A stretch of 64,000 nucleotides of DNA, from positions 1 through 64,000 of the forward strand of contig JAFWEP010000006.1 of assembly GCA_017512885.1 (NCBI GenBank). Reading direction: 5' to 3'. The DNA comes from Erysipelotrichaceae bacterium. GTDB taxonomy: Bacteria; Bacillota_I; Bacilli_A; Erysipelotrichales; Erysipelotrichaceae. A model generated the notes under the pieces. The model did no database searches, was not told where the DNA came from, and worked only from the letters and a program-made list of their open reading frames with translations. Every line of letters begins with the position of its first letter. The stretch's first letter is position 1. The position numbers and the translations under genes are program-made. Shown here piece by piece: positions 11,299 to 14,451 of this stretch.

Positions 11299-13131
11299 AT
11301 GATCACATTGGATTCCCGGATCAGCGAAGTCTATGCGCATCCGGTCGGACACGATATCCTGAAGAAAGTGCTTTTACAGCTGGGAAGGAGCGAGAAGTGG
11401 ATCGATAACCCCCTGGCAGGCAGTCTGGAGCTCCGGGATCTGCAGAAGATCAGCGGCAGCATCCTCGATGAGAGCTTCTATGATTCTTTCCTGCATCTGC
11501 TGAATAATGAAAAAGACGTACCTGTCGTATCACAGGAGAAGAGCGCTCCGGCCTGGTGGAAGGAAGCGGTCTTTTACCAGATCTATCCCCGTTCCTTCTG
11601 TGACAGCAACGGCGATGGGATCGGTGATCTGCAGGGCATCCTCAGCAAGCTCGATTACCTGAAAGAGCTGGGCATCGACGCTCTCTGGCTGTCGCCGATC
11701 TATGATTCGCCGGATGACGACAACGGCTACGATATCCGGGATTACCGTAAGATCCAGGAAGCCTTCGGAACGATGGAAGACTTTGATACTTTACTGAATG
11801 AAGTTCACAAAAGAGGAATGAAACTGATCATGGATCTGGTGGTCAACCATACTTCCGATGAACACCGCTGGTTCCAGGAGGCTTTAAAGGATCCGCAGTC
11901 TCCCTACCGGGATTACTACTTCCTGAAGAAGGGCCACTACATCCCCAACAACTGGACTTCCTTCTTCAGCGGAGAAGCCTGGAACCGATATGATGACGAT
12001 CTCTGGGGACTGCATCTCTTCTCAAAGAAGCAGATGGACCTGAACTGGGACAACCCCAATGTCAGAAAAGACGTCATCGAAATGATCAACTGGTGGCTGA
12101 AGAAGGGCGTAGACGGCTTCCGGATGGACGTCATCAACTATATCTCCAAGGAAGAAGGACTGCCGGAAGGCAATGCCTCGGTCGGAGAACTGATGGGCTA
12201 TACCGGCATCGAACATTACTACTACGGGCCCCATCTTCACGGATACCTGCGGCAGATCCATGAGGAAGCCTTTGCCCCGCATCAGGCCTTCTCGGTCGGT
12301 GAGACGCCCGGCATCGGCATGAAGATGAGCCAGCTGCTGTCGGGAGAAGAGAGAGGCGAGCTGGATGCCGTCTTCTCCTTCGATCATCTGGAGACGCCCG
12401 GTCACGTCCGTTTTGAAGACTATAAATACGATCTGAAGTACTACCGCGACTATGTGATCGACTACATGGAGAACTACGGCAACAACTGTCATTTCACCCT
12501 CTTCTGGAACAACCATGACAATCCCCGGATGATCTCCAAGATCACCGATGAGGCCGGTCTGCACCGTCCGCTGGCGATCCTGCTGGCGGTGCTGCAGCTG
12601 ACCTTAAAAGGCATCCCCTTCCTCTATCAGGGAGATGAGATGGGTCTGGCCAACATTCCTTTCCGCAGCATGAAGGACATTCAGGATATCGAATCCATCA
12701 ACAAGTACAACGAACTGAAGATGACGATGTCTCCTGAGGAAGCCTGGAAGATCATCCTGGCCGGCACCAGGGATCATACCCGGATGCCTTTGCCCTGGAA
12801 TGAGATCCCGGAGGGAGAAGGCTACAGGAGACAGATCGTCGACATTGAGGTACGGGCAGCTTATAAACTGCTGATCGCCTTACGGAAGAAACATTCGGTC
12901 TTTGCCTACGGGGACTTTAAGGTCCTGGACAGGAGCGGAGAACACTTCACCTATCTGCGGGAAGATGAGAAGGAACGTTTCCTGATCGACTGCAATCTTT
13001 CCGACCGGGAGATCAAGGCTTATCAGACAGACGGTGAGCTTCTCTTCCCACATACTGAAGGGAATGGTAAAATATACCTGCGGCCATATGAGGCCAGAGT
13101 CTATAAATGTAATAAGGAGGAAACGCTGTGA
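11299..13131 (+). CDS. GH13 alpha-glucosidase, oligo-1,6-glucosidase type
   Basis: Cytoplasmic retaining alpha-glucosidase, 610 residues. The (beta/alpha)8 core starts near residue 85 (WWKEAVFYQIYPRSF). It has the Ca-site-like DSNGDGIGDLQGI, the DLVVNHTS region, the nucleophile Asp in GFRMDVINYI, the acid Glu in SVGETPGI and the stabiliser Asp in NNHDNPR. The Val after the nucleophile Asp is the residue linked to alpha-1,6 rather than alpha-1,4 preference in this family. About 80 extra N-terminal residues form a predicted helical domain that family members usually lack. AAGGAGG precedes the ATG. The next gene begins inside its stop codon. Confidence 0.9.
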   Translation: MITLDSRISEVYAHPVGHDILKKVLLQLGRSEKWIDNPLAGSLELRDLQKISGSILDESFYDSFLHLLNNEKDVPVVSQEKSAPAWWKEAVFYQIYPRSFCDSNGDGIGDLQGILSKLDYLKELGIDALWLSPIYDSPDDDNGYDIRDYRKIQEAFGTMEDFDTLLNEVHKRGMKLIMDLVVNHTSDEHRWFQEALKDPQSPYRDYYFLKKGHYIPNNWTSFFSGEAWNRYDDDLWGLHLFSKKQMDLNWDNPNVRKDVIEMINWWLKKGVDGFRMDVINYISKEEGLPEGNASVGELMGYTGIEHYYYGPHLHGYLRQIHEEAFAPHQAFSVGETPGIGMKMSQLLSGEERGELDAVFSFDHLETPGHVRFEDYKYDLKYYRDYVIDYMENYGNNCHFTLFWNNHDNPRMISKITDEAGLHRPLAILLAVLQLTLKGIPFLYQGDEMGLANIPFRSMKDIQDIESINKYNELKMTMSPEEAWKIILAGTRDHTRMPLPWNEIPEGEGYRRQIVDIEVRAAYKLLIALRKKHSVFAYGDFKVLDRSGEHFTYLREDEKERFLIDCNLSDREIKAYQTDGELLFPHTEGNGKIYLRPYEARVYKCNKEETL

Positions 13132-13577
13132 AACTTGCAGAAGCCCTGCAGGAGAGAGCGGATCTGAAGATCCGTATCCAGAACCTGCGCCAAAGACTGC
13201 TCAGCAATGCCCTCGTTCAGGAAGGCGAAAAGCCTTCGGAAGATCCGGCGGAGCTGCTCAAAGAACTTCAGGAGACACTGTCGCGCGAAGAGAAACTCGT
13301 CGCGGCTATCAATTTACGCAACTGCATCACCCGTGTTGAGAACCGCTCGCTCACCGAGATGATCGCTATGCGTGATACTTTGACCGAGAAGATCAGTATC
13401 TATCGTGACATTGTCTCAGCTGCCTCCAATATCGCCTCTCGTGTCAGCGGGAGGGAGATCCGCATCCTGAGCACCTATGATGTGAGGGCTCTGCAAAAGG
13501 AGACAGACCGGCTCGCGTCCCAACTTCGCGAGCTCAACAACAAGATCCAGTCGACCAACTGGACGACGGATCTTTAA
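13128..13577 (+). CDS. DIP1984-family protein
   Basis: 149 residues, almost entirely helical and probably coiled-coil. It matches the DIP1984/septicolysin-like family by the signature MKLAEALQERADL, then ALVQEGEKPSEDPAELL and the C-terminal LRELNNKIQSTNW. Biochemical function is not established. The start is GTG with AAGGAGG seven bases before it and overlaps the GH13 stop. Codon use changes in its second half (more CGT, CTC, TCG) compared with its neighbours, hinting at transfer. It is followed directly by a structured tRNA-like RNA, and the two may form one unit. Confidence 0.85.
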   Translation: MKLAEALQERADLKIRIQNLRQRLLSNALVQEGEKPSEDPAELLKELQETLSREEKLVAAINLRNCITRVENRSLTEMIAMRDTLTEKISIYRDIVSAASNIASRVSGREIRILSTYDVRALQKETDRLASQLRELNNKIQSTNWTTDL

Positions 13578-13795
13578 GTCCAACGAGTTACCTGCCGGAG
13601 AGAATGTGATCTCGACAGCGGAGAATACAGCTGTACCAGGTGGTACCGCGCAGGCCGCGGGAGGTTCGAATCCTCATTTCACACATTCGCCTAACCAATT
13701 ACCACAGTACATTTACACTTTATACTTACTACCCAGCATTGCCGGCAGGCAGGGCGGGAGAAGGGGGAAAGGTCCCGTAATAAGGGACCTTTCTA
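13578..13795 (+). ncRNA. Structured RNA with tRNA-like cloverleaf (Y-RNA-like candidate)
   Basis: No open frame fits here, but base pairing is rich. An 8-bp outer stem joins 13591-13598 to 13742-13749, and a 7-bp stem joins 13602-13608 to 13682-13688. Inside lie three hairpins in tRNA order: GTACC/GGTAC (13633-13646), CGCG/CGCG (13647-13659) and GAGG-TTCGAAT-CCTC (13661-13675), which is a canonical T-arm with a seven-base T-loop. The architecture of an end-to-end stem carrying a tRNA mimic is that of bacterial Y RNA-like (YrlA) RNAs. No Ro60/Rsr gene lies in the window. A core resembling the T-box (GGTGGTACCGCG) also occurs. Confidence 0.55.
13768..13794 (+). terminator. Terminator of the structured RNA
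   Basis: AAAGGTCCC and GGGACCTTT pair around a seven-base loop, followed by a short T-rich tail. It marks the probable 3' end of the RNA begun after the DIP1984 gene. Confidence 0.75.
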
Positions 13796-13848: not shown

Positions 13849-14451
13849 ATGATCGGACAGGAAAGCGAGACCCGGGAGTTCCGTAAAGGCATGGGCCAGC
13901 CGGAGAAATCCATCCGTTCCTTAACGGCGATGGTCAATTCCCATGGCTACGGGGAACTGTATCTGGGCGTAGAGGAAGACGGCAGTGTACGCGGTCTCTC
14001 CCCCAACAAGAAATCAGAGACCGTTGAAGAATGGCTGAAGGAGCTGACCGATCCTCTGCTGAAGGCAGAGATCCGGGAAGAGGAAGAAGAGGGACTGCGC
14101 TATCTGAAGGTGACGGCTTATGGTACGGAAGGACCTTACGCCTGTGACGGAAGATACTATATCCGGATCGGTACTGCCGATGTGCGCTGCTCGACGGCAG
14201 AACTGCGGAGACTGATGACAGCGGAAGCGAAGGCTCCGGAAGGCATCCGGCTGAGCCGTTCGGAAAGAACGGTGCTGGAACTGCTCAAGGGAAAAGAAGA
14301 AGCGACGCAGAGCGAACTGGCCGTAAAGAGCGGTCTCAGTCTGAGCGGGGTCAAGAAGGTCATGCGCCATCTGCAGGAGAAGGGACTCTTGCAAAGACAG
14401 GGAGCCCGCAAGAACGGAGCCTGGGTAGTGAAAGATTCCTCCGTAATATAA
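13849..14451 (+). CDS. AlbA_2-domain transcriptional regulator
   Basis: 200 residues. The N-terminal ~120 match the Schlafen/AlbA_2 putative DNA-binding domain (ESETREFRKGMGQ, NSHGYGELYLGVEEDGSVRGL, YYIRIGTADVRCS). The last ~65 are a winged helix (LSRSERTVLELLKGKEEA to LQEKGLLQRQGARK). This type of protein usually acts as a transcription factor or RNA/DNA-associated regulator, with unknown targets. AGAGGTGAT precedes the ATG. It lies between the structured RNA terminator and lysS, with 45 bases to lysS and no terminator, so it may be co-transcribed with lysS. Confidence 0.8.
   Translation: MIGQESETREFRKGMGQPEKSIRSLTAMVNSHGYGELYLGVEEDGSVRGLSPNKKSETVEEWLKELTDPLLKAEIREEEEEGLRYLKVTAYGTEGPYACDGRYYIRIGTADVRCSTAELRRLMTAEAKAPEGIRLSRSERTVLELLKGKEEATQSELAVKSGLSLSGVKKVMRHLQEKGLLQRQGARKNGAWVVKDSSVI

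What the first reader, a model, noticed from the sequence alone, without database searches (positions are those of the whole stretch)
13578..13795. tRNA-like structured RNA behind a DIP1984-family gene
A noncoding stretch has an 8-bp end stem, a 7-bp acceptor-like stem and three consecutive hairpins ending in a perfect T-arm with loop TTCGAAT, then a terminator. This is the plan of Y-RNA-like (YrlA) RNAs, yet no Ro60/Rsr gene is nearby, while a helical DIP1984 protein of unknown function lies directly upstream in the same direction. The pair may be an RNA-protein system.
Basis: partly seen in the sequence, partly recalled or inferred. Interest (0 to 1): 0.7.

Follow-up and report, generated by a model that had tools for sequence, protein, structure and literature searches.

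The report
New RNA-protein pair, possibly RNA repair
Directly behind an uncharacterised bacterial gene (DIP1984) lies the gene for a previously uncatalogued, intricately folded ~190-base RNA that accompanies this protein across many bacterial phyla and in phages, and that sits beside RNA-repair genes in three lineages, so the two probably form an RNA-protein complex that handles damaged transfer RNAs or similar RNAs.

Summary
The feature is real and larger than described. A covariance model built from 44 homologous loci finds one ~190-nt RNA directly 3' of the DIP1984 (DUF6847) gene, same strand, median gap 15 nt, in 97 loci; the window scores 102.8 bits. Of 28 modelled pairs, 27 covary. The architecture is an end stem, a second stem, an H-type pseudoknot, a hairpin whose loop pairs downstream (second pseudoknot), an optional tRNA-like T-arm, and a G-rich tail. 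The T-arm co-occurs with an upstream UGG, suggesting a tRNA elbow mimic. RNA and DIP1984 co-occur almost perfectly (18 of 19 DIP1984 genomes, 0 of 127 others). Phages can carry the RNA apart from the gene or inside a tRNA array, favouring a trans-acting RNA. DIP1984-RNA lies in the Acinetobacter RNA-repair operon (rtcR/RNase Z/rtcB/.../rtcA) and beside rtcB in two genera of the window's own family. No Rfam 15 family matches, including YrlA, and the genome has no Ro60. Best reading: a new RNP acting in tRNA/RNA repair, working somewhat like Ro60-Y RNA without being one. The RNA class is well supported; the function is inferred.

The parts
13128..13577 (+). DIP1984-family (DUF6847) gene, 149 aa, GTG start; predicted helical protein and presumed partner of the RNA
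   Evidence: Pfam PF20935 1.9e-47, NF038048 2.5e-51; AF2 pLDDT 93 with only 3KDQ as clear structural relative
13581..13767 (+). structured non-coding RNA, whole element (model hit 13581-13766)
   Evidence: covariance model R1, 102.8 bits, E 1.2e-37; no Rfam 15 family
13591..13598 (+). P1 end stem, 5' strand CCTGCCGG
   Evidence: 7 modelled pairs covary
13742..13749 (+). P1 end stem, 3' strand CCGGCAGG
13603..13607 (+). P2 stem, 5' strand AATGT
   Evidence: 98% of cells paired, all pairs covary
13736..13740 (+). P2 stem, 3' strand GCATT
   Evidence: window mapping
13610..13624 (+). P3 hairpin TCTC-GACAGCG-GAGA; its loop takes part in the pseudoknot
   Evidence: helix 4
13615..13619 (+). pseudoknot 1, 5' strand ACAGC (loop of P3)
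   Evidence: 57 distinct covarying helices in 88 sequences, p about 1e-14
13630..13634 (+). pseudoknot 1, 3' strand GCTGT
13641..13643 (+). TGG, D-loop-like GG that co-occurs with the T-arm
   Evidence: Fisher 2e-10; 65%-identity representatives p=0.0013; independent pairs 10:1, p=0.012
13646..13660 (+). P5 hairpin CCGCG-CAGGC-CGCGG
   Evidence: helix 5
13652..13655 (+). pseudoknot 2, 5' strand AGGC in the loop of P5
   Evidence: helix 6, not part of the model used to align
13689..13692 (+). pseudoknot 2, 3' strand GCCT
   Evidence: helix 6
13661..13675 (+). tRNA-like T-arm GAGG-TTCGAAT-CCTC (optional module, absent in over a third of homologues)
   Evidence: helix 7
13750..13767 (+). conserved G-rich 3' tail (consensus GAGGGYGGGnAnGGGGA)
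   Evidence: near-invariant columns in A1
13768..13793 (+). terminator-like hairpin AAAGGTCCC...GGGACCTTT
   Evidence: seen in sequence and fold; T-run too short for the terminator scan

Best explanation
The stretch encodes a previously uncatalogued structured RNA of about 190 nt, transcribed with or just after the DIP1984 gene and ended by a terminator-like hairpin. The RNA and the small helical DIP1984 protein most likely form a dedicated ribonucleoprotein that acts in trans. The RNA is a double-pseudoknotted scaffold closed by an end stem. Many versions, including this one, add a module that mimics the tRNA elbow (a T-arm plus an upstream GG standing in for the D-loop). Inferred mechanism: DIP1984 binds the scaffold, and the particle recruits or decoys tRNA-recognising enzymes so that damaged tRNAs or similar RNAs are repaired (with RtcB/RtcA where present), processed or cleared. 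This is a role like that of Ro60-Y RNA particles in other bacteria. SHOWN: the RNA, its secondary structure, its linkage to DIP1984, its absence from Rfam, and its position in or beside RNA-repair genes in some lineages. INFERRED: protein-RNA binding, elbow tertiary contact, action in trans, and a role in repair.
For: RNA class: 97 DIP1984 loci carry it on the same strand, median gap 15 nt. 27 of 28 pairs change on both sides; 94.7% of cells pair against 71.5% shuffled and about 40% when slid. Pseudoknot 1 has 57 helix variants. Model hits outside the training phylum lie at the expected place in Mycobacterium, Streptomyces, Paracoccus, a cyanobacterium and Bacteroidales. Linkage: 18 of 19 DIP1984 genomes and 0 of 127 others in the family sample have the RNA, p=4e-22; the only other hit is a tRNA-Ser. 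In a Bacillota sample all 4 genuine hits are next to DIP1984. Trans action: phage L125 has two RNA copies 0.5 and 1.3 kb past the gene with an ORF between; in one MAG RNA and gene lie on different contigs. Elbow mimic: T-arm and TGG co-occur, p=2e-10, and 10:1 in phylogenetically independent pairs, p=0.012. Repair: Acinetobacter rtcR / RNase Z - rtcB - unknown - DIP1984 - RNA - rtcA. rtcB is directly upstream of DIP1984 in one genus and directly downstream of the RNA in another genus of the window's family, chance about 5e-5. One phage carries the pair inside a 24-tRNA array. Published: rtcB and the gene directly downstream of it rise 252-fold with tigecycline in A. baumannii (PMC7652931).
Against: No transcript of the RNA and no protein-RNA binding has been shown here. 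Most DIP1984-RNA loci have unrelated metabolic neighbours, and the window's own rtcB lies on another contig. RtcB presence correlates only weakly with DIP1984 (7/19 against 19/127, p=0.047). The T-arm is absent from over a third of homologues, so elbow mimicry cannot be the core function. Acinetobacter RNA hits are weak (14-18 bits), supported mainly by position and by stems visible by eye. The DIP1984 fold gives no functional hint.
Confidence: 0.6

Rival explanations
1. The RNA is a cis-acting 3' UTR element: DIP1984 protein binds the end of its own mRNA and autoregulates stability or translation; no free RNA particle exists.
For: Almost always directly behind the stop codon, same strand, median gap 15 nt, with a terminator-like hairpin after it in the window.
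Against: Phage L125 has two copies 0.5 and 1.3 kb away with an endonuclease VII-like ORF between them. In genome G563 the RNA and DIP1984 are on different contigs (MAG caveat). L097 has the RNA about 300 nt away. A ~190-nt double-pseudoknotted element with a T-arm is elaborate for an mRNA end.
Confidence: 0.17
2. The pair is a defence or addiction cassette (type III toxin-antitoxin-like: pseudoknotted RNA plus protein), kept on plasmids and phages for persistence or inter-phage conflict.
For: Patchy distribution (19 of 146 family genomes); on 371 of 72,556 plasmids, mostly small Acinetobacter plasmids, and in phages; compact ~700-bp unit with variable neighbours.
Against: In type III systems the RNA lies upstream, usually as repeats, and the toxin is an endoribonuclease (own knowledge). 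Here the RNA is downstream and single, DIP1984 is a helical protein with no nuclease match, PADLOC gives nothing significant, and the sequence conservation (residues invariant across the phyla aligned) is unlike a fast-evolving toxin.
Confidence: 0.12
3. A divergent Y RNA (YrlA) whose Ro60 was replaced by DIP1984.
For: Same slot between repair genes in Acinetobacter as rsr-yrlBA in the Salmonella rtcBA operon; end stem plus tRNA-like T-arm.
Against: No YrlA covariance match; acceptor stem not conserved; two pseudoknots; T-arm optional.
Confidence: 0.06
4. Ordinary or artefactual: a decayed tRNA or chance hairpins.
For: Weak tRNA-Sec match, 14 bits against a cut-off of 47; ARAGORN finds no tRNA.
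Against: Covariation in 90 distinct sequences and linkage across phyla.
Confidence: 0.01

Closest known systems
Ro60 (Rsr) - YrlA/Y RNA particle of bacterial rtcBA operons
   Same: Non-coding RNA with end stem and tRNA-like part, coupled to one dedicated protein, found between RNA-repair genes (PMC7790460 for Salmonella; here)
   Different: Protein unrelated to Ro60/TROVE; RNA has two pseudoknots and an optional T-arm; YrlA model does not match; usually not next to repair genes
tRNA (class II) / mascRNA-type tRNA-like RNAs
   Same: T-arm with TTCRANY loop and a GG that may act as D-loop; model R1 picks up a tRNA-Ser at 18 bits and mascRNA scores below threshold
   Different: No conserved acceptor stem, anticodon arm or CCA end; end closed by P1; pseudoknots
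tmRNA-SmpB
   Same: Pseudoknotted RNA with T-arm-like part and a small dedicated protein
   Different: No tag ORF, no acceptor/CCA; Rfam and ARAGORN find no tmRNA; protein not SmpB
Type III toxin-antitoxin (ToxIN-like)
   Same: Pseudoknotted RNA next to a small protein gene, on plasmids, phages and chromosomes
   Different: RNA downstream and unrepeated; protein has no detectable nuclease fold
DIP1984 / DUF6847 protein family (3KDQ)
   Same: The protein is a member
   Different: No function or RNA partner reported in the papers that could be searched

Membership tests
DIP1984 / DUF6847 protein | match to PF20935 / NF038048 over the curated cut-off | tested here: met
   161 bits vs 27; 173.7 bits vs 70; model superposes on 3KDQ, Z 15.8, rmsd 1.7 over 148 residues
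YrlA / bacterial Y RNA | match to Rfam RF02553 | tested here: not met
   no match in the window at E<=10, in 10 homologous loci at E<=5, in the genome, or in 12 further loci at gathering cut-off
YrlA / bacterial Y RNA | Ro60 (TROVE) protein encoded in the genome | tested here: not met
   PF05731: no match in the whole genome; control genome detected
YrlA / bacterial Y RNA | binding to Ro60 through the end stem | not testable with these tools
   needs a binding assay
tRNA-like RNA with acceptor stem | conserved 7-bp acceptor stem GAATGTG/CACATTC | tested here: not met
   47.3% of cells paired vs 46.5% shuffled
tRNA-like RNA (elbow mimic) | T-arm with TTCRANY loop plus partner GG co-varying in presence | tested here: met
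   Fisher 2e-10, representatives p=0.0013, independent pairs 10:1; tertiary contact itself not shown
any Rfam 15 family | match at or above gathering score within the RNA | tested here: not met
tmRNA | tRNA-like domain plus tag reading frame | tested here: not met
   ARAGORN and Rfam: none
Type III toxin-antitoxin | endoribonuclease toxin with RNA repeats upstream | tested here: inconclusive
   RNA is downstream and unrepeated in nearly all loci; fold search gives no nuclease but a missing match is not proof
RNA-repair (Rtc) associated RNP | encoded with rtcB/rtcA | tested here: inconclusive
   true in Acinetobacter and two genera of the window's family; not true at the window locus or at most loci

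The most novel reading that the evidence does not exclude
A new class of bacterial ribonucleoprotein: DIP1984 plus a double-pseudoknotted RNA with a pluggable tRNA-elbow mimic. It would serve as a general tRNA-damage surveillance/repair particle in bacteria without Ro60, and be carried by plasmids and by phages (in their tRNA arrays) to withstand tRNA-cleaving host defences.
Probability: 0.4. Interest if true: 0.92.

Novelty: categorically new. Interest (0 to 1): 0.82.

Why it matters
It turns a widespread protein family of unknown function (solved structure 3KDQ, sometimes annotated septicolysin, present on hundreds of Acinetobacter plasmids) into the likely protein half of an RNA-protein particle, and it adds an RNA family absent from Rfam 15 that spans at least five phyla. 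The Rtc operon context makes it directly testable what the particle does in RNA repair, a question that is also open for Y RNAs. The T-arm switching on and off with its GG partner is a natural test of tRNA-elbow mimicry.

Tried and rejected
BLASTN with the window RNA found no relatives in family genomes: the sequence diverges too fast, so homologues were reached through DIP1984. YrlA: rejected. A SerRS-arm-like fold for DIP1984, suggested by the tRNA-Ser resemblance: Foldseek/VIA listed only 3KDQ as clear relative, other hits are generic helical hairpins, so no support and no refutation. A GGT(5')-ACC pairing across P1 and a small hairpin after pseudoknot 2: no convincing covariation. Exact motif scan of viral contigs: no hits. 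Gene-neighbour tally in 133 neighbouring proteins of Clostridia/Erysipelotrichaceae loci: no RNA-repair partner among the 25 most frequent families shown. RNA hit in G026: a tRNA-Ser, false positive. Phage locus L126 has a DIP1984 relative without a detectable RNA. G083/L019 and L112 carry RNAs too divergent for a strong score; L116 gave no model hit although stems and tail are visible by eye. Search for published sRNA evidence next to rtcB in A. baumannii: none found. Burroughs and Aravind 2016 and Chen et al. 2014, which might mention related observations, were not held.

Full report
WHAT WAS CLAIMED.

THE OBSERVATION. The gene at 13128-13577 is a full-length DIP1984/DUF6847 protein (PF20935 1.9e-47, NF038048 2.5e-51). 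No ORF of 80 aa or more lies in the stretch behind it. The stretch folds better than dinucleotide shuffles (z -3.2). No Rfam 15 family reaches its cut-off anywhere in the window; the best sub-threshold match is tRNA-Sec at 14 bits against 47. ARAGORN finds no tRNA or tmRNA.

HOMOLOGUES. DNA similarity finds nothing convincing in the family, so I collected DIP1984 genes: 19 of 146 genomes of the family and 80 loci in GTDB species genomes. Reading downstream of their stop codons showed a common RNA. I aligned 44 (A1), built covariance model R1 and searched 100 sources (window plus loci; 589 kb, both strands). 98 matches lie at DIP1984 genes (97 loci plus the window, which repeats L001); the only other hit has E=0.27. 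All 97 are on the gene's strand, median gap 15 nt, range 5-118. The window scores 102.8 bits, E=1.2e-37. Loci not used for training that hit at the expected place include Mycobacterium branderi (78 bits), a cyanobacterial plasmid (46), Streptomyces (41), Paracoccus (37), Bacteroidales (55-73) and a genome with TGA codons inside the frame (42); Acinetobacter is weak, 14-18 bits. These span Bacillota, Bacteroidota, Actinomycetota, Cyanobacteriota and Pseudomonadota, plus that TGA-recoding, mycoplasma-like genome, which the tool places in the window's class. Enterococcus (L105), L112 and L116 show the stems by eye but score little or nothing.

STRUCTURE. A model-free covariation ranking of alignment columns puts P1, P5, P2, P3, the T-arm and pseudoknot 2 at the top. 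With the whole structure written out, 94.7% of 2302 cells pair against 71.5% after shuffling and about 40% when partners are slid by one column; 27 of 28 pairs have changes on both sides. Pseudoknot 2 was not in the model, so its covariation is not an alignment artefact; the other helices were in the model and lean towards it. Pseudoknot 1 varies in register and was tested without column pairing: mean longest helix 5.38 against 3.88-3.96 in controls, p about 1e-14, 57 different helices. The order is: P1 5' - P2 5' - P3 hairpin with pseudoknot 1 - UGG - P5 hairpin whose loop forms pseudoknot 2 - optional T-arm - pseudoknot 2 3' strand - variable region - P2 3' - P1 3' - G-rich tail - terminator-like hairpin (coordinates in parts).

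ELBOW MIMIC. The T-arm (loop TTCRANY) is present in 54 of 88 sequences. The UGG just before P5 is found in 43 of 54 with the T-arm and 4 of 34 without it (Fisher 2e-10; among 39 representatives below 65% identity p=0.0013). On a DIP1984 tree the T-arm changed at least 16 times; in phylogenetically independent pairs that differ in it, UGG goes with the T-arm 10 times and against it once (p=0.012). From general knowledge of tRNA, G18-G19 of the D-loop bind the T-loop; this is the simplest reading, but the contact itself is not shown.

LINKAGE. In the family sample the model finds the RNA in 18 of the 19 DIP1984 genomes and in none of the 127 others; the only extra hit is a tRNA-Ser (Fisher 4e-22). 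The 19th genome (G083/L019) carries a divergent copy. In 295 Bacillota genomes all four genuine hits lie next to DIP1984. Exceptions are informative: phage L125 has two copies 0.5 and 1.3 kb downstream with an endonuclease VII-like ORF between them; phage L127 carries the pair inside a 24-tRNA array; in MAG G563 the RNA and gene lie on different contigs. These favour an RNA that works in trans. Phage locus L126 has no detectable RNA.

THE PROTEIN. DIP1984 is predicted with high confidence as an all-helical protein (pLDDT 93) whose only clear structural relative is 3KDQ, the Corynebacterium family member of unknown function (Z 15.8). Residues invariant across the phyla aligned include K2, Q31, N65, R105, R134, Q141, N144 and W145, compatible with, but not proof of, RNA binding. 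No paper in the searchable library discusses its function.

RNA REPAIR CONTEXT. On an A. baumannii plasmid the order is rtcR (opposite strand) - RNase Z - rtcB - unknown ORF - DIP1984 - RNA - rtcA; an Acinetobacter 'phage' assembly shows the same stretch from an RNase BN annotation to rtcA. The unknown ORF has no Pfam match but contains RNKLEH, which resembles the HEPN RNase motif (inference). In the window's own family, rtcB lies about 50 nt upstream of DIP1984 in genus g35 and about 170 nt downstream of the RNA in genus g3; finding two such adjacencies by chance has probability about 5e-5. The two different arrangements suggest independent associations. In Salmonella the corresponding operon carries Ro60 and Y RNAs and responds to cleaved tRNAs (PMC7790460). 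In A. baumannii rtcB and the gene directly downstream of it are the two most induced genes under tigecycline, 252-fold (PMC7652931). Most loci, including the window, have no repair gene next door; the window's rtcB is on another contig.

INTERPRETATION. Shown: a new structured RNA, its architecture, and its near-obligate linkage with DIP1984. Inferred: an RNP acting in trans on tRNA or other structured RNA damage, working like Ro60-Y RNA but not a member of that family. Rivals are a 3' UTR autoregulatory element and a defence/addiction cassette; both are weaker on present evidence. A divergent YrlA is excluded as far as covariance models can tell.

LIMITS. No expression or binding data; many loci are from metagenome-assembled genomes; alignment A2 is fitted to the model; the literature library is partial, so an earlier description in a subscription journal cannot be excluded. 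The 'categorically new' label refers to the RNA class and the pair, not to the suspected function.

Noticed in passing
L128:3340-3990 (A. baumannii rtc operon): Unknown 216-aa protein between rtcB and DIP1984 with an RNKLEH stretch resembling the HEPN ribonuclease motif; no Pfam match.
   Followed up: partly
L128:834-1808: A metallo-beta-lactamase-fold protein annotated as RNase Z leads the Acinetobacter rtcB operon, divergent from rtcR.
   Followed up: no
L127, whole locus: Phage contig with 24 tRNA genes in 10 kb, with DIP1984 and its RNA inside the array.
   Followed up: partly
window 13849-14451: Directly downstream of the RNA: a Schlafen/AlbA_2 domain plus winged-helix protein in the same direction, followed by a class II (D, K, N type) tRNA-synthetase gene, probably lysS.
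   Followed up: no
L129:4861-8343 (Paracoccus plasmid pBEN): DIP1984 and its RNA lie next to a DEAD-box helicase and a BREX BrxC/D ATPase gene and an IS21 element.
   Followed up: no
plasmid records such as CP007550.1, CP040049.1: DIP1984 proteins are annotated 'septicolysin' on some Acinetobacter plasmids, which appears to be a misnomer carried through databases.
   Followed up: no
window 13750-13767 and homologues: Very strongly conserved G-rich tail GAGGGYGGGnAnGGGGA right before the terminator-like hairpin; purpose unknown.
   Followed up: no
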